A DNA stretch of 64,000 nt from Phialocephala subalpina (lineage: Eukaryota > Ascomycota > Leotiomycetes > Helotiales > Mollisiaceae), in assembly GCA_900073065.1 (NCBI GenBank), contig FJOG01000024.1, positions 407,048 through 471,047 of the forward strand, in the 5' to 3' direction. A program made the position numbers and the translations under genes. Shown in pieces: positions 15,985 through 60,356 of this stretch. The notes beneath the pieces are model-generated. The model searched no databases. It had not been told where the DNA came from and was given only the letters and a program-made list of their open reading frames with translations. The stretch's first letter is position 1. Each line of letters starts with the position of its first letter.

Positions 15985-17364
15985 CAGTCCCGACCCACTG
16001 CTATTTAGCGAGCAAAAAAACATCAGAATTCCAGCATTTTATTATTGCACTTAAATCCAAATAACTCAACAACTACTAATCCAAATACATTAAAACAACT
16101 ACTATATTAATCCTCGCAATCTCCTCTTCAATTTGAGCTACTAATCTCCTCAATCCATTAAGCACAGACCTCAATATTTTGTGTGCCACCCATCTGCTGC
16201 AATGCAAGCCTCAATCCGAGACGGCATACTCTCATATAAAACATCAAATAACTCTTTGTCCAATGTGTCCCATGCAGCTTGTAAACAAGACTCCAAGCGC
16301 TGTCTCGCATGCTCTGACTCTGATTTATCAGCTGCAACCTCTAAGAACATCTCAAAAACACGTGTTTTAAGAGCCCACCATATGTGCTCAATGGGGTTAA
16401 GATCTAGAGAGTATGGAGGCCAATTTAAGACAAGTGGGATGCCATGCTTAAAAAACCAAGCTTTGACTTTACCTGCTATGTGAATAGAAGCATTATCCTG
16501 CATGAATTCATAGCCTGGCTCCAAGTTCTCAAAAATTGGGCGTAGTTCAGCCTCTAAGACCTCTAAATAGCTCTCGGCAGAGTACCCATGCTTCTTCGAC
16601 TCAAAGTCTCGATCCATAATGTAAAGGTTGCTCCTCCCATAGTCCCAAAAGGCTCCCCAAACCATAACTTTCATGTTCTTATTTGTGCCATAAGTTTGTA
16701 CCATCTCCCGATCCCATTTCTGTGTAAGTGTGCGAAAGGCCCATTCGTCCCTTTTACCCCGCCCCCGCTCCACTGAACACTTATCACTCCATACCACCAT
16801 TCCCCATGTTTCCTTATTCCAATATCGATATGCGAGGCACCAAGCAAACCTTTTAGCTGCGTGAACTTCTGTGAGGTGTGGTCGGCGTTTGCAGTGCCAA
16901 TTGGTAATGCCATGTCTCTTGAGAATCCTTTTGATGGTAGAAGTCGAGCAAATGAGGGCGCAGGCGGTTTTAACTTGTTTGTAGGTGTCCTTTGGGTGTA
17001 GGCGTACATAGCGTAAGAGCATACGTTCTTCGGCCAAAGAGTAAGACTTTCTGCGAAGATCTTTTGGTAGAGTCGAACCTTCATGGCGTAAGTGGTCGAC
17101 AGAGAGGGTGTATCGAACGGTGGGAAGCCCGACATTTAGGCCTATTGCAATTTCGGTAGGACTAGAAGTAAAGAGGCGGCATCCTGCAATTTTACCGCGC
17201 ATATATGGAGTTAGATGCTATCCTTTGAGTCGATTCCTAGAGATCTCTCCCATAGGAGAACGTTGAGGTGGCATAATCGTGAGGTTTATGAAGAGAGGAG
17301 GAAACGCGTTTCCAAAAAAACGCGCTTTTACGCGTTTCGGCTAAGTAGGAGTGCACGGGCACTG
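15985..17364. mobile_element. Tc1/mariner-type DNA transposon, 1380 bp
   Basis: The element is bounded by TA at 15983-15984 and 17365-17366, the target duplication of this superfamily. The ends begin CAGTCCCG on the left and CAGTGCCCG on the right (reverse complement). They stay similar but imperfect for about 28 bp, both containing CACT and TTAGC. One intact minus-strand transposase frame fills the interior. The flanking gene becomes in-frame when the element is removed, which fixes the boundaries to the base. Confidence 0.92.
16171..17202 (-). CDS. Tc1/mariner-family transposase
   Basis: 343 residues from an ATG at 17202, no introns, no internal stops. The N-terminal half has helix-turn-helix character (TEIAIGLNVGLPTVRYTL and STSTIKRILKRHGI). 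The DDE catalytic domain is visible: first Asp in VVWSDKCSVERG, second Asp in FMQDNASIH, and the acidic partner in YSLDLNPIEHIW, 36 positions after the second Asp. The enzyme cuts and pastes the surrounding element at TA sites. Because the frame is open and both ends are present, the copy may be autonomous. Confidence 0.93.
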   Translation of the reverse strand: MRGKIAGCRLFTSSPTEIAIGLNVGLPTVRYTLSVDHLRHEGSTLPKDLRRKSYSLAEERMLLRYVRLHPKDTYKQVKTACALICSTSTIKRILKRHGITNWHCKRRPHLTEVHAAKRFAWCLAYRYWNKETWGMVVWSDKCSVERGRGKRDEWAFRTLTQKWDREMVQTYGTNKNMKVMVWGAFWDYGRSNLYIMDRDFESKKHGYSAESYLEVLEAELRPIFENLEPGYEFMQDNASIHIAGKVKAWFFKHGIPLVLNWPPYSLDLNPIEHIWWALKTRVFEMFLEVAADKSESEHARQRLESCLQAAWDTLDKELFDVLYESMPSRIEACIAADGWHTKY

Positions 17365-20890: not shown

Positions 20891-23877
20891 TCACTCACGC
20901 TGCTGAATCCGCCTTCTTTTGGATTCCCGTGTCGGCCTTTCTTCCTGTGTTTCGAGTAGGTTCCTTTTCTTGAGCCCCAATTCGTGTAGTAGCTTTGCCG
21001 TTGCATCTGGAAATAATGGCTCGAGAAATTCCCGCATAATATCTGCTGAGGAGTATGGTTGGTCCTTGTAGACAATGTACACGTCTTTCCCGGCATCCAA
21101 CGACACCAGTAACTTCATGATATGAATAGCCTCCTCCTCTGAATCTTGATCCAAGCTCACCGCATGATGTAGAATGCTTTCGCAGAGACTTTTCGAACTC
21201 AATGATAAGGATTTCGGGTCTGCACCGCATCGAAGAAGTAATAACACCATATCTATGCTGACAACCGGGACTTTCGTCGACTGACTTTGATGCAGCATTA
21301 GACGATGCAGTAGGGATGATGCAGTTGCAACGACCGATGATCGTTCTAAGTTTGACAATTTTTTACTCACATATCCAGTGAGGCTGTAGACTGCGGCGGT
21401 GTCAAGAAAGGTAACTTCTTTTGAGTGTAATAAAACACTGCTCCAGTAGGGGCCAGAATACAAGATCATAAACCGATCCAAATGGTCAAGGATTGAGGTC
21501 TGCAGCTTGTGAGTCTCGGTTTGCCGGTTTGCGCGGTGAGCATGGAGAAGAGCACAGTAGGACATATCCGAGAAAGCAGAGTTCCTTTCAAAATACGGTG
21601 TACCTTGGATCTGTGTCCACATAGTGCAGGCTTTCAGAAGAGCAACATGAGGATTAAAGGTGGTCCCTGCCGTGTGAGTCAAAAGTCGAGACCAGCATTC
21701 ATCTCTTTCAAGACATTCTCGAACAGTTCGGTGTAAGTACTGAATTGTGGAGTCAGGTGATACTTGTTCGAGATAGTCAAGGTTGGATACTTCCAGAAGC
21801 CCGGCGCACCTTGCAGTCAACTGCACTGCTGTATCTTCGTATCTTCGGCCGATTGAATCTTGATGAAGTCCCTGGATTGTATCAAGGCTGAGTTCTTCTT
21901 TGATGGCCAACAAAAATTTCAAAATACTGAGCGCAGTTCCACTGTCCCTTGAGTTTAGCGACGAGCCAGATGTTTCACCCCAAACATCTATTGAGGCCCG
22001 GATGATCTGAAACGCCTTTGAAGCCCATACTATATAGAAAGGCTCTATAAGTTTGAGAAGATGTTCATAGAGTGGCTCTAACTCCCTTGGTAGTAGACGG
22101 ACTCTCTCGCGGAGGATGGCAATATCGTCACGGTTCCTCACCCCTTCGATCAATGACTTGACTACAATTCGAACCCACAAAAAGACTCCATCCGCCTTCT
22201 CAACAATCTCGTGAACTAGCAAATCTACTGATTCAACAATTCCCGATAATAGTCGTTGAAATGCTAGGCTCTTTCTGAATTTGTTGTTGACGTAATACTC
22301 AATATCCGAGTAAGTTAGATCCTGGAGTCGCAAAGTTGGATAAGTGCGAAAATTATCTTTGAAAACCTGCCAAAGCCTGCTTGATACGCAAATTTTGACG
22401 TTATGTGACTTCACAATCTCCGTGAAAAGTTGTATTATTTCGTCGTAATCTCCATCGAATTCGTCAAGCCCGTCTATTAACAAGCACAGTTTGAGAGGTA
22501 TTCTTATCTGCTGAATGACTTTTCTGAATACAGATATAAGCTCCCGTAAATTCCATGACTCGTCGAAGTTGATCATGGTAATATTCATCAAGCATGAGTA
22601 TGTTCTTGCCCAACGTTCAGCCAGGACTATCGGAATAAGTTCCGGTGTGCTGCGGAGTATTTGGAAAAGTAGACCGCGGAAGAGTCCAGTTTGCGACTTC
22701 TGCTCTTGCGTTCCGCTATTCCAAAAAAATAACGAAGCAAGACAGAGCGGAATTGTAGTAGAGGGGTTAAGCGCTGCGCCGTTTGCCCACCCTCTTAAAA
22801 ACTTATAAGTCCGAGCATCATCGAATATATGCTTTATCAAAGTCGATTTCCCAGAACCGGCCTTTCCATTAATCCAATATATGCCCTCGCCACTCCTCAG
22901 CCATTGGGAAAGGTTACTCCATGGTCGCTGCTTCGTCTCTGAATCTCGAAAAGCCCACTCGAAAGTCTCAGGATAAGATTCGAGAACAGATTCGTAGCGA
23001 TGTGACATCGAGGGGTAGCTTAGACTCTGAAGGATTGCCTTCGTTACTGACTTCCGTAGCTTTATTTCTTCTTCGTCTGGTACATCGAGCATTTCAATCA
23101 TGCTTATAATCTCCTTCATTTCATCACCTTGATCGCTCCTATGACTTCCAATAATAGCAGCACGTGTACGAAGACGTTCATTCGGGCTAACAGTGTCAAG
23201 TCGCCGTACCATTTGAATCAGAGTCGCCAATTCGCCGCGGATTTCGTGCGTCACTGTATTTGTATCTTTGGCCTGGATTTGGTTGTCGAGTAAGGATGAG
23301 ATGATATTTTGGGTCTGTTGCTCAAGGCGTTTGAAATATGAGGACATCTGGATTGATTGCGCGTCCATTGTTGCACTGTATCAAAGTCAGCGAGCCTCAA
23401 GGCAAAGGCTGGAACTATTTGCCTGATAGAGAATAACACTCTTGTTTCTAGAGCTTCCTTGAGATTTGCAAGTCGTTTCATCAGGGCCGCTATTTCTTCC
23501 TGTGACCAGGCACTCTTTACCGCTTGCCAAAAGCTCTCCCATTTTCGACCTTTGACACATTTCACCTTCAGCTTATGCAGCCGCTCTATGATCTCTTCGG
23601 CCGCAGTTACAGCGTCATCGCATATCTTCTCAAAGGTCTTCCGGTGCCATTGATCGTCCTTGATGAGAGAGCTAGACGGATCTGTCGGGCAGACCGATCT
23701 TCTCAGTTTGACGACGACCGCTTCAAGATCAACGGTAACAAGCTCAATTTCTTCATTGGCAGCTAGTGCCCCGCTGGTGGATTTGTACAGCTCCCGACAT
23801 CCAGAAAACAGCTTACAGCCAAAGTCTGCAAACTGTACTATTGTCCCGGCCACCGAAAGCGCAGTTAATGGATCCAT
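20891..23877 (-). CDS. NACHT-domain fungal NLR (STAND protein)
   Basis: Two exons, complement(20891..23375, 23438..23877), 974 residues. The start is the ATG at 23877 (MDPLTALSVAGTIVQFADFG, typical of fungal NLR N-terminal effector domains). The NACHT NTPase follows: Walker A GKAGSGKST near residue 320, Walker B LCLLIDGLDEF near 445 and VKICVSSR. Next comes the helical region FLWVRIVVKSLIEGV typical of this subclass. The C-terminus is short, with one ankyrin-like LLLRCGADP motif and a basic KRRR tail, but no WD40 or long ankyrin array. Such proteins are cytosolic switches in incompatibility or immunity. The 62-base intron has a weak donor (GTTATT) but is the only option that keeps frame; a one-base frameshift is the alternative. 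Confidence 0.82.
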
Positions 23878-26278: not shown

Positions 26279-29200
26279 TCAGTCATCTTCTCGATCCTCC
26301 AGATCGTAGATGTTGACAACACTGGCAAGATCATCATCCACGCTGCCATACCCTTTGTCTTGCAAGCGTCGAATTATTGAAGGATCCGGCTTCCCAGTGA
26401 TGTACATAGCCGCGGTTACCAAATGAGGAGGTCCAGTGCCGCCAGCACGGAGACCCTTGAGAAAACAAAGCTGCTTCCCGCCCATCCACCAAACTAAATT
26501 GGAGACGTACTTACGGTTGTATAACGCGAAGAGTGTTGACGCTTTCAACAGCTCCCATCCCGAGAGCTCTGGATTGGAGCCATCGTTGCATAAGAGCGTT
26601 CTTGTGAAGAGGTTGTCATCCTGTGGTTTGATATCTCGGTATTCTTCGTATATCTCCGCAACATACGAAATGAATTCAGGCTTTGACTCGTCGTTCGGGG
26701 CGCGAGCAAAGTGGGCCGTCCAGGAATTCTTCAATACTTCAAGGTCTGCTTCTAAGTCGTTGAGCAACTTTGTTGCTTCTTTGTTCTTCTTCGTTCTCTC
26801 TCCGACATACATCTTGTAGCGCGCTACAAGGTCGTCATCGTACCATGAGCCCTCTTCCTTGAGCTCTTGTAGGGACTCGTTGATCGCTTCGTGCGCTACC
26901 CACAACAAGTGTTCGATGATATCAGACGATGGCTCCCGTGGGACCCAATTGCTGTCTTTTCGCCGAAGCTGTCTCGGTTTGTTGGTCTTGATGATGAGGT
27001 CTTTGAATGTTTGCCATCGCTCTTCGTCAAACTCGTACCCTTGCTTGGCCTGGTCCACAAGATTGCTGAGAAGTTGACTAAGGTAAAGGGCCTCTCTACT
27101 GCCGACTCTGCCTTGCGTATAGCATACGCTTTCTTTGTAGCTCGTACATATACCCAACATACTCGGTTGCATGTTGAATTGGAAGGACTTCTTCAGAAAC
27201 AATGAAGTAGCCGAAAGAGATGATTCGCTACGAATCAGATCTTCGTACTTCGTTGAGTCTTTAGTTAGAAAGCCCTCTAGGACGAGGTCTGGAACGGCTG
27301 GAACGTCAGCGCATGCAAAGTTGTCCACAATGGTAGGTTCCCAGCAGACCCATGCGATGTCTCCGTCATAGTCTCCTCCTGAAAGCTTGGCGGCGAGTGA
27401 GGGATTTCCAACGATAGGGAACACGATAACGTCCTTGAGGCCAACGAGTTCCTCTTTGACCACGGCCTTGACCTTTTGGATGTCGGAAACAAAGTGAGCA
27501 GGGCATCTTGCTACCAAAACATCTGCTCCACTGAGACTGGCGCCGGAGAAACCTGAAACATTATCAACAAAACTAGAGAAGTCGATGTAAACTTCATTCT
27601 CCTTCAGACAACCCCAGAAGTCTGGCACCATATAGGCATATGTAGACCTGCCAACAGTGATGCACATGCGTTCTTTCAGGTCATCACACTTCCTTTTGAA
27701 CACTTCTCTGGCCATCTTGTTCATGTAGAGCGAATTTTTGGGGTCGAATCCAGAATCCAACATGACATTGAGGCATTCTTCCTTGGTAACTGGTCTGCCG
27801 GTTCGGTAAGGGATTGCTCCATTCTTGAGTCTCTCATTGCTACCGGAGCTGCTTGCTCTGATCCAAAGCTTAAAGATTGGTGGCGACTCCATAGCTACTT
27901 GAATGTCCTCAACCTCTTGCTTCAAACCTTGTCGCAAGAGTTCCGCGATAGCGTCTCTCATTGCCTTGCCTCGACCAATAGCTTTAGCTCTGTCCATGAG
28001 CAGAGGCAGTAACTGTGTGTTCAAGTCTGCTGACTTCAGTGGACCGGAGTATCTGAGCACCTCGAATGCTCGATGGCTCCGATCGTCTGACTCTTCATTG
28101 AGTTCGCTACTCGGAGACCACTTCTGTTGCGAAGAGTAGACTTCGATCCAGTCCTCTCCGCCTGTGTTGGTATGATCGACGACCCAGAACCCCTTTGCTT
28201 CACCTAGTCGGGCCTGGAATCCACTAGGCAGATATGATAAACCAAGTTTTTGTGTCACCTTCAATGCGAGGCTCGGAGAAATGCGGCCGGCACCATCATT
28301 CATAACCTCGCCATTCTCTTTGAGGTCATCCTTGAATATTATCTGAGATCTCTCTAAAACAAGAGTTTCCTGGTTTCGGGATACAGCTAACACAATGTTA
28401 GTGACTGACGTGAAGACGGAAGTGGCTTCCTCACCCAGAGTCGTTCGATTGAAAAGCTTCAAGTAGCTTTGCCAGGTGTTTTCGCATGTAGGCCTAATCT
28501 TGTCAAGAAGACGATCAATACTTATTCTCGGGTGACCTATGCTTCGGTTGGGATAAGAGATCAAAGTGCTGTCCACGAAACCAAATCCATCAACAGCGAA
28601 AAAGAAAACCCGATATATGGCCTCGGAACTAGTGGCCTCGCGTCTCTTTGCTGTCCTTTCCTTGGGTTTGACGAAGAATGGCTTCCATATTCGTCCAAGG
28701 AGAGGATGCTTCGTATCAACTAACCAATCATAAAACTTGCCACGCCACACATCTACTCCAATTTTCTGCACTTGACGCTGTACAGCCGGTGGTACATGTC
28801 GGCCTGTAATCTGGGGCATAGATAGCTCTGCAAAGCGATCGTGGCCGAACCTTCGACCAAGTCTGTGGGAGTATTCCAGTTTCAGAGGGTCCAATCGAAG
28901 CTGCAGCAGTGAAGATTCATTGAAAGATAACGACCCAGAAAAGGAGACGGAGTAGAAACCCTTCTGAAAATCGTTCAAAGCGCAGGCCCAAACTTCCTCG
29001 CCGCACCTCTCAGGAAATGGTTTGCCTTTCAAGGGTGGAAGATTCTTGAGGAAGCTCCAAAGCGTATTGTAATCTTTCAAGCCGGAGGTCACTGGCGCGT
29101 CGAATTCGGATAGGGAAACTTCGGCATGTAGGAACACACGAGTGATTTCGTACAGTACGCACAAGGGGGCATCGTCGAGCGCCGTGGGGAGAGGAGCTAA

Positions 29201-30372
29201 TAATATTAGTGAGTCCTCAAGACACATAAGAATAACTTACGGAAAACATTATCGAGAGAAACTTTGAGCTGTTTCTCGGCTGGACTTAGTAGAGCGTCAT
29301 CGTCGTCAATGGTGTATCCATTAAGATCCTGGGATAGTTCTTCGGCCTCCGGAATGTCCTCACTAGGTATGGCATTTCCTGGGCTCAAGTTGAGAACTTC
29401 CTCTTGACATTCGGCCATCCTTCGTTCGAAGCTGGAAGAAGCGAATTCAGAAGAACTTTGGATGTGATCTGGTTGTCGAGTTGTGAACGCAGAAGACAAC
29501 GATTGTCGTGGCAATCGAGGCTCATCATCGGGGACAGTCTCTTGAGTGCTGGTAGGGAAAGAATTTAGGCCTTGGGAAAAGACGCTCGAGACATTCGCGG
29601 TTGATGCAAAGCTTGTGTTGGCACTTTTCGGAAGGCCTCCCTTCTCTTCTCGTGGGATCGGTCTACCACGGCCAAAAGACAGATCCGGTGGAGGCATATT
29701 ATTGGTGGAATTGGTTGATTTGGGTCGTAGAATGTCGTCTGACCGGGGCTTTTTGACAGGAGTAGCATCCTGCAGAGTGTCGTCCCTAGCGCGTTTGGAT
29801 TCTGCAGATGAACTTGCAAAGGAACCTTTCATCTTCGGGTAGGATATGTGTCCGCTCGGTCCTTCTTTATTTGGCGTCAAGGAGAAATGTATAGGACTGT
29901 CGTTTATGTTGGTATTCTCCGGAATGAATCTTTTGGGAGTCTTCTGTTTCTTGATCGGCTCCCAAGCAGCGGACAAGCGTTGATGCAGGCAGTCGAGGAG
30001 TTGTCCGCGCTCCTCGTCGGAAACCGGGCAGGGTCGATGTCTAGTCTTTTCAGGAACGGTTCCTCTTTCTGCTTTTGGCTTATTCACCCACCCTCTCCAT
30101 TTAGCGTAGGCTTCATTCTCAAACTGCTCTGCAACGTCAATTAAAGCCGGCTTATCCTTCCAACCGATTCCAATGATCATGATAACACATTGCTGCTCTA
30201 GAGTCGAATTTTCTCGGGAACTTGGTGACTCTTGTTCGGGGATCTTAAGATCAAAAGCCCAGCGATAGCATAATGACTGCACAATAGACTTGATTGTGTC
30301 TTTGGTGTTTTTAATCTTCCTTTCCCGAGATGCCGTGGTCTCGCTGGCTGAAAATTCCGTCGATGGTGCCAT
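26279..30372 (-). CDS. RNA-dependent RNA polymerase, QDE-1 type
   Basis: Two exons, complement(26279..29196, 29241..30372), 1,349 residues; the 44-base intron begins GTAAGT and ends TTAG. The cellular RdRP catalytic domain is clear: the metal-binding LSGGDYDGD motif lies near residue 985, preceded by DVLVARCPAHFVSDIQKVKAV and VFPIVGNPSLAAKLSGG. Length matches the QDE-1 class (about 1,400). The N-terminal 380 residues are disordered, Ser/Pro-rich and basic, apart from a helical start. The enzyme makes double-stranded RNA from aberrant transcripts for Dicer in quelling or RNAi. The start at 30372 is the first ATG; the frame is open upstream only from non-ATG codons. No Dicer or Argonaute gene lies in the window. 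Confidence 0.93.
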
Positions 30373-39329: not shown

Positions 39330-40795
39330 GTTGACGGTGATACTTTCTGACTGGGATTTGACGCGTAGATTTGACTGAGAGAAGGCAAACTGAATGAAAC
39401 AGTACTCGTTGGACCTACATGATGTTATATCCTTCTTGCTGCGCCGCTTCAAACTAATTTCCAGGCATTCCGAAGGCTGGATCTTACGCTACCAACAATC
39501 CCATTTGGCGAGCAGGCATCGCGAAGGACGGGGCTGTGTTGTGCCGATCTGACTGGTGCAAAACGGTGCTGTTCCTGACGTGAAATTCGATTTAGGGCTG
39601 TGACTGCAAGCCGGGATCCGGAAGCATCTTCAGATGGTTTGGCCAATGGTGAGATCGTGATGTTTCTAGGTCGAGGCTTGGTGTACGAAGAAGGAAAAGC
39701 GAAGCAATAGAGTTGATCTTAGCCTCGGAGGAAAGGTTGCGGCTAAAATGGGGACACCAATTATGACGCAAAGCTTGAGATAAAGGTGGAGTAAAGTCTA
39801 TTTTGGGCGCTTTAGCGAGAAGCTTGATTCTTTTGAATCTCGTGACTTGGATGCCTTCTTCCACCAAAGTAGCTTCCGTAAGAGTTTCCTACACATGTTC
39901 AAGCGTGTACATCGACTCTATTTACACATGTAAACATCAAGGTTGCGGAATTACAATGCTGAAGAGTGAAAAGTTGAATTTCGAACCTCGGTCCGCTGCG
40001 ACTCAACATGAAAATGCGGGGTAATGTTAACCTTACATGGTTACTCGGTGAGCATACCTGGAATAAACTCCTCTGGGCAATGACATATTGGTTGAAGCCT
40101 GGAAATCCATTTAGAAAAGCGCTTTCTTAGTACTTTCAATGAGGAATGTAATAGGTAGAGATGAGCCAATCAAGAGAATTCTCTAAGCGAGGATTTTAAG
40201 GGGGTATAATAGGGCAGTATTATCGCCTCAAAATCTCTACCCGAAAAGTTCGAAGATTATTTGAGATATAAATTCTCTAAGTAAACTTAATATACTTATA
40301 TAAATCTCTTCCAAAATATTTTTAATATTTAATAATTTTTGAATATTTAATAATTTTTGAATATTTAATAATTTTTAAATATTTAATATTTTTCAAATAT
40401 TTAACTTTTTTCAAATATTTACTTTTTTTTAAAATATTTACTTTTTTTTAAAAAACTTTTAATAATTTTCAATTATTTACTTTTTTTTTCAAATATTTAA
40501 CTTTTTTTTAAATATTTAATAATTTTTTTCAAATATTTAATTTTTTTTCAAATATTTAACTTTTTTTAAATATTTAATTTTTTTTAATATTTGAAAAAAA
40601 AAAAATTTAAATATTTAATTCTTTTCAAATATTTAACTTTTTCAAATATTTAACTTTTTTCAAATATTTAAATTTTTTAAATATTAGATTTTTTTTAAAT
40701 ATTTGTTTTTTTTAAATATTAGATTTTTGTAGAATCCAAATAAAAATCTCACTACTTAATAGAAGAGGCCAAGATAATTGGTTAGATGTGATAGT
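39330..40795. other. Intergenic region including an AT-rich tract
   Basis: No gene recognised between 39330 and 40300; the remainder is the AT-rich simple sequence listed separately. Confidence 0.5.
40311..40735. repeat. AT-rich low-complexity tract with a repeated AAATATTTAA unit
   Basis: About 425 bases of nearly pure A/T in which short units such as CAAATATTTAACTTTTTT recur irregularly at 18-30 base spacing. Occasional C residues mark each unit. It lies at the 3' edge of the family-2 array. Confidence 0.85.
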
Positions 40796-41433
40796 TTAAA
40801 GGCTTGGGATATTAACACCAGAAATTCCTTGTGCTAATGTCACGCCTTGACTAATCGCAGACATGCTCTTGACGCCCTCATAGAATCCCTGCAAGTAGAC
40901 TTTCTCAAATTGCTGTTCCTGTCTCTCATTGTTTCGCTTCTCCCAATCCTCAAAGAGTACCCATTCCCCAGTCTCCTTGTCTTGAAGCTCAACGCGCTTG
41001 AGATCCTCGATCGTAAGGCGTGTGACGTTTCTGACGGACAAAGCGTTGAGTCGAGGGCAACGATAGGTTTTCGAAGACTGCGACAAGGTTGGAGTAGCCT
41101 CGTGGTCTCGTGGGTTCGAGTTCAGGGAAGTCGCCTCGAGCCCTATCGCCAACTGTTGTTGACGGTTGGCAGCTAGTAGGAACAATAAGATTGAAGCTTA
41201 CAGAATGCGATCCAAGTCGCCAGACAGAAGCGCCATGCTATCCAATCCAGGACCTTAACGGTGAAATCGTTCTCTTGCCAGCCAAAATCATGGATCATGG
41301 CACCGACGCCAGGCTTGACGACTCTGGAGGCTTCGCTGATGAATCCACGTATGGCTGCTTCTGGATTGAGGTGCCCGTTTAATCGAGCTCGTGTAATAGT
41401 TGCTGATGCCAATAATGATTGGTATTCCGCCAT
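40796..41433 (-). pseudogene. Family-2 member A, probably frameshifted
   Basis: First of a tandem array of related genes on the minus strand. Exon 1 (41202..41433, ATG MAEYQSLLASATITRARL) holds the family's first module ending DWIAWRFCLATWIAF. Comparison with the sister genes favours a 49-base intron (41153-41201), giving ELEPTRPRGYSNLVAVFENL, the conserved start of the second module. That frame then runs out while the natural continuation (SVRNVTRLTIEDLKRVELQD) lies in another frame. This implies a frameshift near 41060. A 29-base intron (41173-41201) would avoid the shift and give 202 residues, but it loses the conserved segment. Function unknown. Confidence 0.55.
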
Positions 41434-45322: not shown

Positions 45323-46867
45323 CTTGTTCGGTGTTTTTGATGTGTTCTTGGAAGAAGCACGAGAAGATACCTATCGGCGCGTCTGGTGCGGGTTGCTAGC
45401 GTGAAATTAAGCGAGCGGAAAGGGGAGCGGGAACGATTTCCGCAGGCAAAGTATCGGGAATTCGGGGATATTCAAGAAATTTTTAAATTGTCAAGAATAA
45501 TAACATTAGGTAGTGGACGGTGGTATGTCACTTATCTATGCAATTCAAACATCAGAAGTTGGTGAGGGGGTCTCCTACACAAAGCTTCATTCATCCCTAA
45601 TATTTCAAATCGTGACGTGGAGTGATGGTATGCTTGATGAATTCTTTTCCTATTCCAAGTACAGAGAGTCAGAGAACGGATCACAAGACTTAAGATATGC
45701 TATAGTAACAACCGAAGAAACAATGCGACCATGAAGAATCTTGTTTCTGGAGAGTCGTGGAAAGACATCTGATCCCTAATCGCGACTCCACCGCTGTAAA
45801 TTCGCACACTCGAAGTTGGAAAGAAACACCTTCTGAAGACCGCCATGCTTCCGTGCCATAAACCGCAATGTTTACTGGTCTTGCATAAGTCCTAATGAAA
45901 CAAATCGCCGTTGCAAAGATTTGCGAAGCCCCTCAAGCTCACTCGGGTCAACTAAGGAACCCGCGTCGACTCGATTCTGCAGCTCCTCCTTCTCTCGTTC
46001 CAGTCCCTTGACCTTTCCAAGAAGTGGCTTCTCGCAGACTTTCATGTAGTCCTCTAAAATCATGCGTTCTCTAGTAACATCATCATATAGATAGCGGTGG
46101 ACGGCACTTAGCTCCAAGTTCTCAAACATGGCGGACAGTATATCATAGCATTTAGGTCGTCGGGGCTCGCGGGCTGTAAATGTGAATTTGACTGAGAGAG
46201 GAATTAGCAAAAAAAGAAAAAGTTGATGACAATGCAACACTCACAGAAATGCTCCCAACTTGCTAAATCAAGACGCCGATGGAACCAATTCGCAATCCTC
46301 TTCACAATACCATCATCGCTCCAGTCGATGTCGTGGCTTAAAAGCGCAAACTCGGCGAAAAGGGGCTCAATGGCTTCACAAACTTCCTATATAATCCCAG
46401 ACGACAATTTTTCCCACCAGAGTCCACTTCCGTCTTTGGACCTGAGCTGTCGCTGCTCTAACCTGAGCTAGGCAGTCCTGAGCGCGCTAATGAGTCAGCG
46501 GGATCTTGCTCAGGGGATCCACTTCTGGCTTCCTTGAGAATCGGTTATAGTTTCCATGTTGTCTAAATATAAATTGTGCTAATGCCTGTTGTCTAGAGCA
46601 CAGCCACTCATTTGAACCTATTAAGGTGGCCGGTGGAGATGTCCGTTCTAGCTCCCTGGTCAAACCTATAAGAATTAAGAATCCCTACCGGAGCCGATTT
46701 TGGATCCCTAGCGTATGGGAACGTACCTACAAGTAAGTTCTTAGGTGGGGCTCCCTGTGCCCAGAAGCTATACGAGGAGCTCTATTTATTTGCTGTTGGC
46801 CAAGTCGCTTATGCGAGTCACCTCTAGTAAGCAGTGGAAGGCACAGACGGGTCGCCGATACCCTCTC

Positions 46868-46876
46868 TATATAAAA
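46868..46876 (+). promoter_or_regulatory. TATA-like box upstream of the methyltransferase gene
   Basis: TATATAAAA lies 164 bp before the ATG at 47040, inside the mobile element, followed by a pyrimidine-rich stretch. This suggests the gene brings its own promoter. Position and sequence are typical, but there is no direct proof. Confidence 0.45.
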
Positions 46877-47039
46877 CATTAAACAAGTCGCTACTTAATT
46901 CTTACCATTACCGTCCCTGTGGCTTTTCATCTTATTCTCAACCTTGTTCTTGCTTTTAGTACGACTTACTCCCCCCATCGACCCCTGTTCAGTCCACGCT
47001 AACACTAAGTTAACCGGCGGCTCGGCCCTCGTCTTCAAG

Positions 47040-47894
47040 ATGGCTTCACAGGCCCAGCACCCGCACCTCCCCCTGCCTGACTACTTCTCCAAGTTCGCTA
47101 GCATTTACGTTCGCCAGACGGGTAACTCGACGCTCAACATTCTTGCCGACGTCATCACCGAAAATGTACAGACGTCCGCCCACCCTGTTCGCCCGGACTC
47201 GGTCGTCCACGACACAGCCGCGGGGCCTGGTATAGGCGCCGCGGCGCTCGTCGCCCGCCTCCCTAAGGACCAGCTACCAAAGGAGATGCTGGTCTCAGAC
47301 AATGTCGCGATGATGGTTTCGGCCGCGCGCGAATCCCTCGTCGCCTCCCCGCTACCCCACGTCGATTGCAAGGAGCTCGACTCGCAGGACCTATCGTCGG
47401 TGCCTGACAATTACTTCACCCACTCGATTAACAACTTTAGTATCTTTACCTTTGTCCGCCCCGCTGACGCCGTCCGCGAGACATACCGCACCCTCCGTCC
47501 CGGCGGCCTCGCCGTCGTTACCTGCTGGCGCCGCTTCGCACCCATGTTCATCGTACACGCCGCCCAGAAGAAGATCCGCCCGGACCTGCCACTCATGCCT
47601 ACACCAAGTCCGGAGTTCTACGAAGAGGGCGTGCTACAAAAGGTGGTCGAGGAGAGCGGCTTCGCCAAGGACGACATAACAATGATCGATAAGGTGTTGC
47701 TCGTCACCGACGACGAAAATATAGCTGGGCTTACTATGCTTATTTCGGGTCCTATGATGAGCAAGGCGCGCGATGGGTACACGGAGGAAGAGGAGGCTAG
47801 GTGGGTTGAGTCTGTTAGGCAGTCTGTGAAGGAAGAGGTAGAGCAGTTTGGAGGTATTAGGTTCGAGGCCTATATCCTCTTGGCTACTAAGTAG
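47040..47894 (+). CDS. SAM-dependent class I methyltransferase
   Basis: 284 residues, intronless. The frame is open further upstream, but MASQAQHPHLPLPDYFSKFA at 47040 fits the start of fungal small-molecule methyltransferases. SAM-binding motif I is VVHDTAAGPGIGAAAL near residue 57, where the usual glycine after Asp is replaced by T/A. A later YRTLRPGGLAVVTCW is the standard post-motif segment. No membrane segment or signal peptide. Codons are visibly richer in C/G at third positions than in the neighbouring array genes. The gene is oriented opposite to the gene the element split. Likely substrate is a small molecule; no biosynthetic partner is nearby. The frame is intact, so it could be expressed. 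Confidence 0.85.
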   Translation: MASQAQHPHLPLPDYFSKFASIYVRQTGNSTLNILADVITENVQTSAHPVRPDSVVHDTAAGPGIGAAALVARLPKDQLPKEMLVSDNVAMMVSAARESLVASPLPHVDCKELDSQDLSSVPDNYFTHSINNFSIFTFVRPADAVRETYRTLRPGGLAVVTCWRRFAPMFIVHAAQKKIRPDLPLMPTPSPEFYEEGVLQKVVEESGFAKDDITMIDKVLLVTDDENIAGLTMLISGPMMSKARDGYTEEEEARWVESVRQSVKEEVEQFGGIRFEAYILLATK

Positions 47895-48428
47895 AGCGAC
47901 TTGAGGGTATCTGCACGAGAAGAGGGAGACGCGAATCGAGAAGAATCTGCCTTAAGTTTAGAGAGATATATTTTGGGGAGAGGTGGGGATCCTATCGGGT
48001 TCCCTGGGAGCCGACTTGGTCCTCCTGGGTATAGTCGTATAGAGTTAACAAACTTTGGCATAGTAGGCGCGAATATTAAACATATTATGATTGGCTGCTA
48101 AGAGGAAAAGCAGGAACGTGACTGAGCAACCTGAGTAGAGGGTAGGCGAGGGTGAGTAGCGCCTGAGCAGAGCGGTGATGCTGACTAACCGCGTTGGAAG
48201 CGAATGTGAAGAAATGTCGTCTGAGACTTCCTTGAAAGTCTTCTCGGCTTCTCCCTCTTCATATGCGAACTCCCTAGCCTTCTGAGAGATCTTCCCTGCG
48301 ATAGACACGTATTCGAATTCCTCGCGCGTCCTCGCTTAATCTCAGCCCACAAATTTTCTCAATTTTGGATCCGTTTTTTGAGGAACTTCCCTCACTACTG
48401 TACAAGAGTGCATCAACGTCAAAGTCCA

Positions 48429-52270: not shown

Positions 52271-55200
52271 ATGTCCGACACTCGAACGATCACAGATGCC
52301 GAGTGGGAAGTGCAAAAAAAGATTATCGAAAGGCTGTACCAGAACCAGACTCTTGGCGAAGTCATGTCTCTGATGGAGCAAGACCATGGCTTCATTGCAA
52401 AGTTAGTCGCCCAAAATCTAAACAAACACACAATCAATCTGACATAATTTGAAGGAAAGCTCAATATACCCGGAAATTCAAGCAATGGAACTTTTCGAAG
52501 AACTCTACAAGTGACAAATGGAAATTCGTGGCTCGAGAATTGGAGAAGCGGAAGCGCGATGGCAAGGAGAGCGAGACATATATCAACGGGAAACTAATCC
52601 CAAACAAGAAGATCAAGAAGGAAATATCAAGATATCTTCTCCCTTCCTATTACAGTACACTCGGCACAGGTAAGTGGTCGCTCGACAAGTAGCTCTTGAC
52701 AAAACCTCTAGTTGATATTCTTCAAGCACCGAGTCCACAACCACCTACTGGGGTCGAAGTTTGCACGCCACGAGGAGGAGAGTGGGAGCCTCGATTTGTG
52801 GACTACCTCCATATTCCGTGGTTTGAGTTCGAGGAATTTATTCAGAGAGATGATTTGTGCCCACTCTACATCTCTATTTGATCTCCTCTAATATGCCGCA
52901 GTTGACTTCCCGCAGAGCAATGCTCATCAACAATATCCTACATTCGTCCCTTGCGACGACTAGAACCTTCCTAAGTTTCTTAACATCTATAGCATCAACT
53001 CATCCATTCCTCAGTTCACACTGCCCGAGGAACAATGGAACTTCCACGAAATCGAAACAACTGCCCAGACAGGCTTTGCATTTGATTTTTCCGGCGATGC
53101 TCCCGCACGATGCTTAAGCCCGTCTGTCGAAGTAGCGGATGAAAACCAAAGTCCTTTGACTTCACACACCTCCAACGAAGAAGCACGATCAATATTCGCA
53201 AGTATAATAGGGGACCCTTATCTTTCAAATGATGAGGACGCCACCTACGCCGTTACTTCACGATTAGATGGATTCTTACCCGAGAGACAAGACGGGGAGC
53301 TCGTGCGGAATGTCAAAAAAATATTTGACTTATCATCGATGGTCGATGCGTCGCTTCAGCTTCTACGCTATACCGTTTTCCTCTCATCCAACGATCTCTT
53401 GTTCAGTTCACAAATTGATAAGTTGCTCAAGTGGATGATTAAGACTGATCAGTCCTTCCTCATCGAACGCTTGATCAAGATTAAGACACCATCAGTGGAG
53501 ATCTTCCTGTCCCACCTCCTCCTTAGTGCAACCAGACTGCAGGAGATTGATATGGTACTTGCTGTTCTCGCTCATGGGATAGATGTCAATACACCAATAG
53601 GCCGTGTACAAAAAAGCACTGCGCTATATGAGGCAACGAGGAAACGGGACGTGCATCTCGTTCGACTTTTGCTGAATGCAGGGGCAAACCCAAATGCAAG
53701 TATTACGTTCAGCCAAATGGAGTCTCCACTACAAGCTTCAGTAAGATCAGACAACAACCACGAATTGATCCAGATCTTGCTCGATGCAGGGGGTAACGCG
53801 AATGTTGCGCCTATCGACTCTTGGACTCCTCATACGCTATTGACCTCTGCGATATCGAACGGCGACGCGGCTCTGGTTCGAATACTCTTGGAGTCGAAAG
53901 CAGAGGTGAACATGATGACGAAGTATTCTATCACAGCACTACAAGCAGCAGCCTCGGTCAATGATGTGGAAATCGTGCAGATTCTTGTCGACGCCGGAGC
54001 TGACGTCGATGCTCCATTCGGAAACCGGTACGAAACAGCTCGTGTGGTAGCCGCGAAGAACGGCAAGTTCAAGCACCAGGTATCGCCGATTCAATTTGCA
54101 GCATATAATGACAACATCGAGATAGTTCAGATACTACTGGACCTGGAAGCGAATGTAGATGGGTACATCCAGTATCCAAGGGACGAATCTCTGGATGATG
54201 TGGATGAGGAGAACGATTATTTTGATGTCGCTTGCCTAAAGACACCGCTCCAACTCGCCGTATCGAACAAGAATATTATTCTTGTTCGTCTACTTTTGTT
54301 ATCAGGGGCTGATCCGAATGCACAGAATTATGGAGACACACCTTTACAAATAGCTGCGAGGAATGACGATATTGCATTGGTACGGCTCCTCCTCAGGAAT
54401 GGCGCCCACGTCAACACTGCTGCACGCAAAAATGGAGGAAGAACTGCCCTCCAGGCTGCGGCATACACTGGAAACGGCGGTGTTGTACAGATACTGCTAC
54501 ATGAGGGTGCCAATGTGAATGCACTTCCTGCATACAGACATGGAAGGACGGCCATGCAAGCTGCAGCCCAGGGAGGACACACAGAAATTCTGCGAACACT
54601 CAGGGAACTTGGAGGGGATGTTAACGCTAAGGCCAGCCCCAGAGGTGGAAGGACTTGCCTTCAAGTAGCCGCTGAGAATAGTGACACTGAGATGATCCGC
54701 CTTCTCTTAAAGTTTCGTGCCGAGGTCAATGCTCCCGCTGCCAGTGAAATGGGGAGAACTGCGCTCCAAGCGGCAATTCAAGGGTACGACAGCGCTTCAG
54801 TTGATATTCTTCTCAAATCGGGCGCAGATATCAACGCACCACCTAGTTTACTGGAGGGAATGTCTGCTCTTTATGGTGCTGTATGTAATAATGATCTGAC
54901 ACTAGCTCGCCAGCTCTTGGAAACTGCGGATCCCAACGGAGCAACAAGTCAACATCCGCCACTCGTCAAGGCCGCACAACGTGGAAACTCTGCTCTCGTC
55001 CGGTCTCTCATTGAGGCAGGCACCGATGCTAATGCTCTTGGACAAAAGAAAGGAAATTCACAGTTCGCATTGCAAGCAGCAGTCGAAGGTGGAAACATCG
55101 AAATTATTCGCATATTACTTGAAGCTCAAGCAGATGCCAATGCTTCCACACACGATGTACCTTCGAAGCCTTTGGTACTTGCAATCGGGGAAAACCGGAG

Positions 55201-55981
55201 GGACATGGTGCGCCTTCTGCTTGCAAATGGCGCAAACGTCAATCCGACGCCGAGTGTCAAAAGTCCCGCAACCACAGCCCTAGGTCACGCGTTAGCAAGA
55301 TTTGTGGTAAACGAAGACATCGTTGAGGATTTGATTGCGGCAGGCGCGGATGTTAATAGACAGAGTAGCGACTATGGCCTACCACTATCTACCGCCGCAT
55401 CAAAAAATCGTCGTTTGACCCAACGTCTTCTGGATGCGGGTGCAAATGTGAATGGGCAGTGGCCAGGTCGACCGACCGCTCTCCAGCAAGCATGCAACGG
55501 ACTCAATATCGACACTATTCAACTCTTACTGGATACTGGCGCTGATATAAATGCGCCCGCAAGTGCAGACATGGGGAGAACCGCTCTTCAAGCAGCGGTC
55601 CAACGTGGTCATGTGCCCATCATCAATCTACTTCTACAACATGGGGCAGACTGTAATGCGCTGGCGGCAGAGTCCTATGGTGGTACTGCACTTCAGTTTG
55701 CGGCGATGGAGGGCAGGATCTCTATTGTATTGTTACTCCTCCGTGCTGGGGCTGAGATAAATGCCGCACCATCAACAAGAGGAGGGAGGACTGCTCTGGA
55801 AGGAGCAGCAGAACACGGCCGTCTAGACGTGGTATCGTTGCTTCTGAAGAACGATGCTGATGAAGATGGGATCGATGCACGGTGTCAGAGAGCAGCGAAA
55901 TTGGCGGCAGCAAATGGCCATCTCGTCATTTCAAGAATTTTGAAACAGTACAAGAGAAAGGAAAGCGGGCAGAAGGATTAA
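52271..55981 (+). CDS. Clr5-domain ankyrin-repeat protein (1,169 residues)
   Basis: join(52271..52401, 52455..52669, 52712..52856, 52916..52945, 52993..55981); all junctions keep frame. The N-terminus is a Clr5 domain: TDAEWEVQKKIIERLYQNQT, VMSLMEQDHGFIAK, then after the first splice KAQYTRKFKQWNFSKN. After a linker and a helical region (residues about 230-350), more than twenty ankyrin repeats follow. Examples are VRLLLNAGANPNAS, VQILVDAGADVDAP, VQILLHEGANVNAL and INLLLQHGADCNAL, many starting with RTALQAA. Such fungal proteins are thought to be protein-interaction scaffolds, often linked to NLR-like systems. The 30-base fourth exon is small but is the only in-frame solution. No stops or frameshifts. 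Confidence 0.88.
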
Positions 55982-57863: not shown

Positions 57864-59053
57864 CTAGCCAAATAACTCATTCATCGAGCTAGCGACTTTC
57901 TTCCAAAGCTCCTCACATGCTTCAATCATATCCTCACTCAATGGCCCTTTCTTACACAACTCCACATTGCTCCTCAACTGATCAATTTTCGTTGCACCAA
58001 GAATAATCGCATCCCCTTTTCGGAGAACAGAATGATGCATGATCCACCTCAAACTGACCTCCGTTGGCGTCAACCCTGCTGCTTCGGACTTCTTGCAGAA
58101 TTCGATCATCGCGTTGTGGGTTGCTGGCTTGCCAAAAGCCTCGGGATAAATTGGAAATCGGCCAGGCTCCCATCTTCCTCCCGAGAGAGTGGAGGCTTCT
58201 GTCGCGAGCGAAACCTTGCCGGTGAGAAACCCGCCTGCCAGTGGCCTTGAGAGGATTAGTATGTCAGTCTCGAAAGCATTAGAAGTAGACTTACCCATAA
58301 GCAAAGATCTTGATGCCATGCTGGCGGAGTAATGGGTAAAGATCCTCTTCTGCGGTTCGTTTAATGGCGTTGTAGTGACCTTGATAGATGGTTGGCTTCA
58401 CGTAGTTGTGCTTCTCGCAGATCTCGAGCCACTCTTTCATTTGAGCGGTCGAGTAGTTGCAAAGACCGAGCTGTTCGAGCTTTCAGCAGTGTTCCTCTCG
58501 TTGTTCAGAATGATGGATAAATTCGACTGACCTGCTTGAAACGCCCAGCTCGATAATGCTTATCGAAAGCTCTCGCGCTTTCCTCAACTGGCACCTTCTC
58601 ATCCGGGACGTGCGAGTACAAGATATTAACCTGATCAACACCTAACAACTCAAAGCTCTTCTTGACACTTGCGTCAATGCCTGCTTCTGATAGACCGAGA
58701 CCTGAAATCTTGTCAACAATCGAGCTCAACGCCTCTGATCCCCATCATCTCGTCCATCTCTCTAGTCGACCACACAAGAAATTCAACTCACCACCTTGTG
58801 GACCCTGTGGCAAAATCTTGGTATCAACCAAAAACCCCTTCTGCACCGCCTTGCTCTCGCCCAACAACCCTTCCGTAACCCACGGACTACCAGGCGGATA
58901 AGCAGCACCCGAATCCAGCTCCAACAAATCCAACTCTTTCAAAACTTCGAGAAGCTCAGAAGCCTGTTCACCATTCACCCAAGTGTGAGAGATACGACCT
59001 TCCCCAATGCCGCCTGCGCCGAAAATGAGCTTGACTGGTGAGGAATTTGTCAT
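57864..59053 (-). CDS. Aldo-keto reductase
   Basis: Four exons, complement(57864..58245, 58295..58479, 58532..58701, 58792..59053), 332 residues, introns 49-90 bases. The AKR tetrad is visible: Asp and Tyr in LELDSGAAYPPG, Lys in VDTKILPQG and His in NILYSHVPD. Later motifs are RAGRFKQ-LEQLGLCNYS, VKPTIYQGHYNAI, FAYGPLAGGFLTGKV and ILGATKIDQLRSNV (NADPH binding). It resembles fungal aflatoxin-aldehyde-reductase-like AKRs that reduce reactive aldehydes with NADPH in the cytosol. The third acceptor gives KQ-LEQLGL where relatives read KxFGLSNY, a small local difference. The promoter runs into the assembly gap. Confidence 0.92.
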
Positions 59054-59204
59054 CTTGAGAGCTGAGGGTGGTTGATGTGGTGAGATGATCGTGATGGCGG
59101 GGCAATGACGGGGTCGTGAACTTGAGAAGTGAGGTGAGATCTGGAGGCACTCTCTTCCGATGTGTAAAGGGCTTGCGTGAGATACGACCGTGAAACGCAC
59201 TATA

Positions 59205-59703
59205 NNNNNNNNNNNNNNNNNNNNNNNNNNNNNNNNNNNNNNNNNNNNNNNNNNNNNNNNNNNNNNNNNNNNNNNNNNNNNNNNNNNNNNNNNNNNNNNN
59301 NNNNNNNNNNNNNNNNNNNNNNNNNNNNNNNNNNNNNNNNNNNNNNNNNNNNNNNNNNNNNNNNNNNNNNNNNNNNNNNNNNNNNNNNNNNNNNNNNNNN
59401 NNNNNNNNNNNNNNNNNNNNNNNNNNNNNNNNNNNNNNNNNNNNNNNNNNNNNNNNNNNNNNNNNNNNNNNNNNNNNNNNNNNNNNNNNNNNNNNNNNNN
59501 NNNNNNNNNNNNNNNNNNNNNNNNNNNNNNNNNNNNNNNNNNNNNNNNNNNNNNNNNNNNNNNNNNNNNNNNNNNNNNNNNNNNNNNNNNNNNNNNNNNN
59601 NNNNNNNNNNNNNNNNNNNNNNNNNNNNNNNNNNNNNNNNNNNNNNNNNNNNNNNNNNNNNNNNNNNNNNNNNNNNNNNNNNNNNNNNNNNNNNNNNNNN
59701 NNN
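59205..59703. other. Assembly gap (run of N)
   Basis: 499 unresolved bases. Nothing can be said about the content. Confidence 1.
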
Positions 59704-60356
59704 TCAATTTCCGGGTCACGTCACGAGGAATGGGTCAGTGGGATACACCCATCAGGCTGTTGGGGTCAATCTGTCAAGACAGTAATGTAAAAACAAGTAT
59801 TGTTCAAGAAGGGGTCAGCAGAAAAAAATTAGGGGAGTCAATAAAGATAAATAAGCACTCCTTACGACCAAGTAGTATTAAGTGGTTGATAAATGGCGAG
59901 CCAGCAAATCATGAAGAAGAAATGCGCTGCAGGCGCGTTCCAGAGACGGTTCTCACGCCAAGGAGAACCGCTCCAGGGGGCGAGTCCGGTGAAGCGAGCC
60001 ACTTACAGGGACCAAGCTGCCGCTAGCAGTGAGAAAGCGCCTGTTACGTGACATGGTGTCAGCACCGAGAATCGGTATTTAGGAAGGTGGGAAGGAGCGG
60101 AGAATCGGTAGATGTTTATCAGTCGGTTTATTGAGAGTCGAGGTATAAAGAAAATTGAAGGTGTGTCTTGTCAGACTTCATCTGGCCAATACCATAAAGA
60201 TACGGAAAACATTGCCTCTCATCTACCAGCGTGGGGTTCTCACGAATCATTGGTGATTTCGGTCCAGAGAGCAAAGATCCTGTGGAAACTTGTTTTTGAA
60301 TTTATTTCTCAGGATACGTTTTCTCATGAATTTCGTTCTATACCCTCCGCAAATCT
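59704..60356. other. Sequence between gap and amylase gene, no gene recognised
   Basis: No coding signature. The stretch 59930-60020 is GC-rich with short self-complementary runs (for example GGTTCTCACGCC and GGAGAACC), and the part next to the gap may be repeat sequence that caused the gap. Confidence 0.4.

What the first reader, a model, noticed from the sequence alone, without database searches (positions are those of the whole stretch)
46382..48232. A TIR element without transposase carries an intact methyltransferase gene and has split a tandem-array gene
Seen: 7-bp direct repeats ACTTCCT at both edges, inverted CAGACGACA near both ends, CTGAG-rich subterminal blocks and an intact 284-codon SAM methyltransferase inside. 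Removing the element rejoins a family-2 gene in frame (FKEV + CEAIEP), with the two halves matching consecutive parts of the sister genes. Known: Pack-type or cargo elements that move host genes are well known in plants and much rarer in fungi. Inference: this is a non-autonomous cargo element mobilised in trans, and the methyltransferase rides with its own promoter.
Basis: partly seen in the sequence, partly recalled or inferred. Interest (0 to 1): 0.88.

Follow-up and report, generated by a model that had tools for sequence, protein, structure and literature searches.

The report
Captain-less fungal single-gene mobile cassettes
In a fungal genome that matches the root endophyte Phialocephala subalpina, a 1.8-kb element carrying one methyltransferase gene sits inside a predicted gene, and its ends recur at dozens of places in that genome around unrelated sequence, often other genes, which suggests a family of small gene cassettes likely moved by a site-specific recombinase like that of the giant Starship transposons.

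Summary
The element is real. Its ends recur at 40 left-end and 39 right-end places. Fifteen complete elements (1.8-11.5 kb) share the ends around unrelated interiors; 8 of 15 hold a recognisable gene: methyltransferase, HET proteins, transcription factor, transporters, oxidoreductases. The repeat is 6 bp (consensus ATTACC), not random. At 7 of 29 left ends a right end precedes directly through one core copy; that junction has two 16-base arms pairing at 13-15 of 16 around a 6-bp spacer, the shape of a tyrosine-recombinase site. Host targets resemble the element's own left arm in exact register (0 of 20,000 shuffles); 12 of 20 fit TTAC(N7)A, the printed Hephaestus-family Starship site. No recombinase gene was found inside; of the DUF3435 captain genes elsewhere, those examined lack these ends. 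Both cargo genes tested have nearest named relatives partly or wholly in other fungal classes, suggesting horizontal transfer. Best reading: captain-less, Starship-like gene cassettes integrated by site-specific recombination in trans. The mobilising enzyme is inferred, not shown.

The parts
46382..46387 (+). left copy of the 6-bp core (ACTTCC, variant of family consensus ATTACC); base 46388 (T) also matches the right side, which across the family is at chance level
46392..46407 (+). left recombinase-type arm TAATCCCAGACGACAA (1 mismatch to the family arm)
46388..46711 (+). conserved left end block (up to about 330 bp; matched parts 71-91% to other copies) with CTGAG repeats
47040..47894 (+). 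intact 284-codon SAM-dependent methyltransferase (Methyltransf_11), GC3 0.73, no close paralogue found in the genome
47936..48225 (+). conserved right end block (up to about 290 bp) with CTGAG repeats
48214..48225 (+). right arm half ATGTCGTCTGAG, abutting the core
48226..48231 (+). right copy of the 6-bp core ACTTCC, followed by host target TTGAAAGTC
48228..48335 (-). upstream part of the interrupted predicted gene (minus strand, open from ARTREEF to TFKE; two stops lie just upstream)
46246..46386 (-). downstream part of the interrupted predicted gene (EVCEAIEPLF...WEHF), in frame across the empty site

Best explanation
[quoted passage not shown] Shown: shared ends, unrelated interiors, a conserved 6-bp core ATTACC at both edges, right-core-left junctions forming a near-palindromic two-arm site, and host targets that resemble the left arm. 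Inferred: a circular (or head-to-tail) form carries the joined ends as an attP-like site; the recombinase crosses over in the core at a target like ATTACCNNNAWAAT, leaving one core copy on each side; a second cassette can enter the junction of the first and build short arrays. Inferred for the window copy: it entered a predicted gene at an ACTTCC variant site, bringing the methyltransferase with it, probably after horizontal transfer.
For: Ends recur at 40 left and 39 right places; among 15 complete elements the interiors give only 13 internal alignments of 32-335 bp. Core repeat is 6 bp: agreement in 12-17 of 18 pairs at positions 1-6, 6 of 18 at 7, 1 of 18 at 8. Seven of 29 left ends follow a right end through one core; arms pair 13-15 of 16 around a 6-bp spacer; PMC3212892 (passages) gives 11-13 bp arms and 6-8 bp spacers as typical of tyrosine recombinases. 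Twenty non-tandem right flanks match TATAATCTC in the junction's register at 4.3 of 9 against 2.44 (sd 0.29), 0 of 20,000 shuffles. Thirteen of 20 have the final A of TTAC(N7)A (p 0.001) and 12 of 20 fit it in full; it is the Hephaestus site quoted in PMC12153272 (passages). CTGAG repeats stand at recurring distances from the ends. DUF3435 genes exist in this genome (25 matches, pieces of fewer genes).
Against: No recombinase or transposase was found in 24 ORFs scanned from 14 of the 15 complete elements (C71 has no ORF of 110 aa), and no captain flank examined has the arm at fewer than 4 mismatches of 16: the mobiliser is not identified. Eight of 20 targets do not fit TTAC(N7)A, the window's own among them. 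The left host flank shows no resemblance to the right arm (3.36 against 3.09 of 12, 1,066 of 5,000 shuffles as high). In 11 of 18 pairs the two cores differ in at least one of six bases, from mutation, wrong pairing or tolerated mismatch. No polymorphic empty site or circle could be examined.
Confidence: 0.68

Rival explanations
1. A cut-and-paste TIR (DDE) transposon family, Pack-type, with a strong 6-7 bp target preference, mobilised by an unseen transposase.
For: Inverted CTCAGACGACA-like repeats at both ends and equal direct repeats at the window copy; insertion into the preferred site of an older copy would also make R-core-L tandems.
Against: The inverted repeats are unequally placed (adjoining the right core, 8 bp inside the left core); the target preference extends on one side only and copies the element's own left arm; position 7 is not duplicated beyond chance; no parent gene for the methyltransferase found in the genome.
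Confidence: 0.17
2. Non-autonomous Cryptons: short tyrosine-recombinase elements with 6-bp direct repeats.
For: 6-bp direct repeats and a recombinase-type site; non-autonomous Cryptons are known in animals, one keeping 438 and 260 bp of its parent's ends (PMC3212892, passages), lengths like those here.
Against: The same paper says that Cryptons lack terminal inverted repeats. No GCR1_C match in this genome, but nothing rang in the 14 controls either, so that test is uninformative. The target fits the Starship motif in 12 of 20.
Confidence: 0.1
3. Relics of full-size Starships that lost their captains by internal deletion, so that each 'cassette' is the remnant of a different large element and is no longer mobile. 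(Not exclusive of the best reading for the original integration.)
For: 15 of 25 DUF3435 pieces are read through stops, some of which may be introns; ends are only 68-90% alike pairwise.
Against: Fifteen complete small units of many sizes, several with long open cargo frames, and repeated R-core-L junctions are not what independent deletions would be expected to give.
Confidence: 0.12

Closest known systems
Starship giant transposons, Hephaestus family (target TTAC(N7)A)
   Same: Short direct repeats that are part of a preferred target, terminal inverted repeats, TTAC-type target, host-like cargo (PMC12153272 and PMC11623301, passages). A captain about 350 bp from the 5' edge is reported for the Starship Sanctuary (PMC12506042, passages), about the length of the conserved left block here.
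   Different: No captain found inside, 1.8-11.5 kb instead of tens to hundreds of kb, one to a few genes, about 40 places with these ends in one genome.
Cryptons and their non-autonomous derivatives
   Same: 6-bp direct repeats, recombinase-type junction, non-autonomous copies keeping a few hundred bp of each end
   Different: Cryptons lack inverted repeats, and the passages I saw do not describe varied host genes as cargo (PMC3212892, passages)
Pack-type TIR elements (Pack-MULE, Pack-CACTA; recalled)
   Same: Non-autonomous ends carrying gene sequence
   Different: Whole open genes, no resident parent found for the methyltransferase, recombinase-type site rather than a random target duplication
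Bacterial integron gene cassettes (recalled)
   Same: Single genes framed by a recombinase site, joined head to tail
   Different: Two-arm site made by both ends, flanking ends of hundreds of bp, no integron platform seen; analogy only

Membership tests
Starship | DUF3435 tyrosine recombinase (captain) as first gene at the 5' edge | tested here: not met
   Genome-wide search gave 25 matches; compared by coordinates, none lies at a listed element; ORF scans negative
Starship | Short direct repeats that are part of the target site | tested here: met
   6-bp core ATTACC with flanking target preference
Starship | Terminal inverted repeats | tested here: met
   Arms TTGTCGTCTGAG / CTCAGACGACAA
Starship, Hephaestus family | Target TTAC(N7)A | tested here: inconclusive
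   12 of 20 non-tandem targets fit in full, 13 of 20 have the final A (background 0.29, p 0.001); the window copy fits neither part
Starship | Giant size, many genes | tested here: not met
   15 complete elements 1.8-11.5 kb; longer candidate pairs (C22, C53, C68) not read in full
Crypton | No terminal inverted repeats | tested here: not met
   Inverted arms present
Crypton | YR with or without GCR1_C in an autonomous relative | tested here: inconclusive
   PF12550 found nowhere, controls silent; PF00589 not found though 14 controls rang
DDE TIR transposon, Pack-type | Inverted repeats exactly at both termini next to the target duplication | tested here: not met
   Right arm adjoins the core, left arm is set 8 bp inside
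DDE TIR transposon, Pack-type | Transposase in an autonomous relative | tested here: inconclusive
   None in the ORFs scanned; not all ORFs or copies were read
DDE TIR transposon, Pack-type | Captured fragment of a resident gene | tested here: not met
   Methyltransferase: next best in genome 26-35%; other cargo not tested for resident parents

The most novel reading that the evidence does not exclude
Fungi have a mobile gene-cassette system: dozens of captain-less units, each one or a few whole genes between lox-like half-sites, that are circularised and inserted by Starship captains in trans, stack head to tail into arrays, and ferry single genes between fungal classes. It would be a eukaryotic counterpart of integron cassettes, and part of the swollen gene inventory of P. 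subalpina (20,173 gene models, 534 with HET domains) may have come in this way.
Probability: 0.35. Interest if true: 0.92.

Novelty: new variant of a known kind. Interest (0 to 1): 0.78.

Why it matters
Known Starships are large and carry their own recombinase. Small captain-less units with the same kind of target could be numerous and easily overlooked, because their interiors look like ordinary host genes. The P. subalpina genome paper reports transposable elements as only 5.7% of the genome and attributes its size to an expanded gene inventory (PMC5148876, passages). The right-core-left junctions bear on a question that PMC12506042 (passages) calls open, whether Starships pass through a circle. 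They also give a defined, testable recombination site.

Tried and rejected
Looking for the mobiliser: DUF3435 genes are present, but none of the flanks examined has the arm at fewer than 4 mismatches of 16; captains at C15, C39, C43, C45, C63, C64 and C81 were judged only by distance to the listed end matches. Phage_integrase (PF00589) gave no match; GCR1_C gave none anywhere, controls included, so it says nothing. A search of viral contigs for the methyltransferase found no relative. Long cargo ORFs of elements C115 and C45 have no PDB relative by sequence. RIP indices were computed and not used: short ends and small coding interiors give unstable values. A tree of 36 methyltransferases (of 120 listed, of 217 matches; picked by me among rows with a species name, unnamed rows and some named ones left out) is poorly resolved, 3 of 33 inner branches starred, so horizontal transfer rests on identity comparisons.

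Rows dropped before counts: of 30 right-end rows, 10 were set aside by hand (5 tandems with a first-type left end, 2 followed by a second-type left-end-like sequence, 1 without a core, 2 false rows), leaving 20; two of the 20 (L018, L054) share one target sequence. Of 35 left-end rows, 6 were dropped by hand, one of which (L009:6004) may be a real variant end. Some of the 18 left/right pairs may be wrong partners (C52, C115 and the 39.6-kb C68 pair above all); a nineteenth possible pair on C35 was not used.

Full report
WHAT WAS GIVEN. It read this as a TIR element mobilised in trans.

THE HOST. The window lies in a 68.1-Mb genome of 119 contigs. Its RNA-dependent RNA polymerase (26279-29227) is 100% identical over the searched part (residues 110-760) to a protein named Phialocephala subalpina; Mollisia scopiformis follows at 72%. 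The published P. subalpina assembly is 69.7 Mb with 20,173 gene models, 534 with HET domains, and 5.7% transposable elements (PMC5148876, passages). The host is therefore P. subalpina or a very near strain, a root endophyte in Helotiales, Leotiomycetes.

Repeats, inverted motifs, CTGAG blocks and the 284-codon ORF are there. A frame of 95 codons is open across the join when one copy of the core is kept (another frame is open for 58). The claim that both halves match sister genes is weak: only the part left of the element has short, low-identity patches. And the repeat is not a random 7-bp duplication, as shown below.

A FAMILY WITH COMMON ENDS AND DIFFERENT CARGO. The window element as query matches other places at its two ends only; no listed match covers its interior (40 of 84 candidates scored). 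Searched separately, the left 330 bp gives 40 places (40 of 51 candidates scored) and the right 297 bp 39, the window included; many matches are partial. Fifteen complete elements were read in full, 1,766 to 11,487 bp. Between their interiors there are only 13 internal alignments (32-335 bp). Families above Pfam's cut-off occur in 8 of the 15: methyltransferase (window), Pyr_redox_2 (C61), HET (C90), Fungal_trans (C87) with MFS_1, Sugar_tr (C34), FAD_binding_4 (C19), HET (C51a) and HET (C52). In the other seven no scanned ORF reaches a cut-off, or there is no ORF of 110 aa (C71). A sixteenth, partly read element (C53) carries a HAD dehalogenase. Among 24 ORFs scanned from 14 of the 15 there is no transposase or recombinase. 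Not every ORF was scanned.

THE ENDS FORM A RECOMBINASE-TYPE SITE. Aligned, the left end reads ATTACC-NNTA-TAATCTCAGACGACAA and the right end TTGTCGTCTGAG-ATTACC. Across 18 left/right pairs, positions 1-6 of the repeat agree in 12 to 17 of 18, position 7 in 6 (chance 0.31) and position 8 in 1 (chance 0.28). The repeat is thus 6 bp; the seventh base of the window copy is at chance level in the family. Seven of 29 usable left ends directly follow a right end through a single core. In these the arms pair in 13 to 15 of 16 positions around a 6-bp spacer. Tyrosine recombinases typically use 11-13 bp inverted arms 6-8 bp apart (PMC3212892, passages). CTGAG repeats stand at recurring distances from each edge (54, 75, 87, 94 on the left; 103, 94, 62, 4 on the right, not all in every copy), which could be accessory binding sites (inference).

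THE TARGET. For 20 non-tandem right ends, the host sequence after the core resembles the element's own left arm TATAATCTC at exactly the register of the junction: 4.3 of 9 against 2.44 (sd 0.29), 0 of 20,000 shuffles. Other registers give 1.65 to 3.2. The left host flank shows no such likeness. Thirteen of 20 carry A at the last position of TTAC(N7)A (p 0.001) and 12 of 20 fit the whole motif. PMC12153272 (passages) gives TTAC(N7)A as the canonical Hephaestus-family target; for the Aspergillus fumigatus Starships it reports direct repeats of 2-12 bp in 19 of 20 and inverted repeats in 18 of 20. The window's own site (ACTTCC TTGAAAGTC) is a variant that lacks both the TTAC and the final A.

THE MISSING ENZYME. 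DUF3435 gives 25 matches in the genome, pieces of fewer genes, 15 of them read through stops. By coordinates none lies at a listed element, and no examined captain flank carries the arm at fewer than 4 mismatches of 16. The captain that would act here is therefore inferred: it may sit in another strain, be lost, or carry diverged ends. PMC12506042 (passages) reports the Sanctuary captain about 350 bp from the 5' edge; the conserved left block here is of about that length.

WHERE THE CARGO CAME FROM. The methyltransferase has no close relative in the host genome (next 26-35%) and a third-position GC of 0.73 against 0.46-0.53 for three window genes. It is 93.0% identical to a Monosporascus protein (Sordariomycetes), 91.9% to Xylaria acuta and 91.5% to Hypoxylon crocopeplum and to Hyaloscypha variabilis (recalled: Helotiales), whereas X. 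acuta differs more from the five congeners in the tree (81.7-87.0%) and H. crocopeplum from its five (77.7-90.8%). The tree joins the window copy with the Hyaloscypha one (99/94) but is otherwise poorly resolved, uneven rates could contribute, and 97 of 217 matches were not listed. A second cargo gene, the C53 dehalogenase, has its best named relatives in Thozetella (82%, Sordariomycetes), Microthyrium (82%) and Tothia (80%, both Dothideomycetes); the other named proteins of other species among the 120 listed (of 1,369) are at 67% or less, the Helotiales species Hyphodiscus at 63%; unnamed ones reach 88%. Two of two cargo genes tested thus point to transfer across classes. Whether they moved as cassettes could not be tested.

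HOW IT LIKELY WORKS. Shown: common ends, unrelated interiors, conserved core, two-arm right-core-left junctions, arm-like targets. Inferred: recombination between the two cores releases a circle with the joined site; a captain-type recombinase inserts it at ATTACC-like targets or into the junction of an earlier cassette, giving short arrays. On contig C61 three left ends follow each other at 90.6, 96.1 and 100.7 kb, the last two of a second arm type.

NOVELTY. In nine searches of the open library no title, abstract start or passage that I saw describes captain-less single-gene Starship-like cassettes. The library lacks bioRxiv and most subscription papers, so this is not proof of absence; the original report on Hephaestus was not seen and is known to me only through the papers quoted. 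I file it as a new variant of a known kind: it works like a Starship but fails two of the features that define one (a captain inside, giant size).

On recount the number of targets fitting TTAC(N7)A in full is 12 of 20, not 13 (13 have the final A); the reasons for dropped rows and the distance of the left arm (8 bp) were corrected.

Noticed in passing
L013:6231-6342 (C61:96097 on), C84:457433, C52:297211, C54:121358, C61:100686: A second left-end type with the same core but the arm TAATCTGCRCCGAA (8 matches at up to 3 mismatches; reversed control 2), following a first-type element on C61.
   Followed up: partly
G000:C68:223892-263484: A left and a right end 39.6 kb apart in the right order; could be one large element or two unrelated ends. 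No DUF3435 match was listed between them.
   Followed up: no
L047:135, L066:73, L009:6004: A third kind of end with arm TAATCTCAGACGACTT followed by a T-rich stretch with TTTCTTT(C/T)GCT, not placed as left or right with certainty.
   Followed up: no
L018:9501 and L054:109: Two elements sit next to nearly the same host sequence (CGAAAGTCAGACTCTAAT...), so they probably entered copies of one repeated target.
   Followed up: no
window 46370-46380 and 47040-47050: The 11-mer ATGGCTTCACA occurs in the left flank beside the insertion and at the methyltransferase start; two copies in the window, possibly chance.
   Followed up: no
window 16171-17202, 20891-23368, 53156-55981: A Tc1-like transposase ORF, a NACHT/NPHP3_N protein and a long ankyrin-repeat protein in the same window.
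   Followed up: no
window 40001-41000 and 59001-60000: Two blocks of 25% GC in a 47% GC window.
   Followed up: no
G000:C32:279504-280799 and other places: 25 DUF3435 (Starship captain) matches, 15 of them with stops read through, which suggests that this fungus has or had full Starships.
   Followed up: partly
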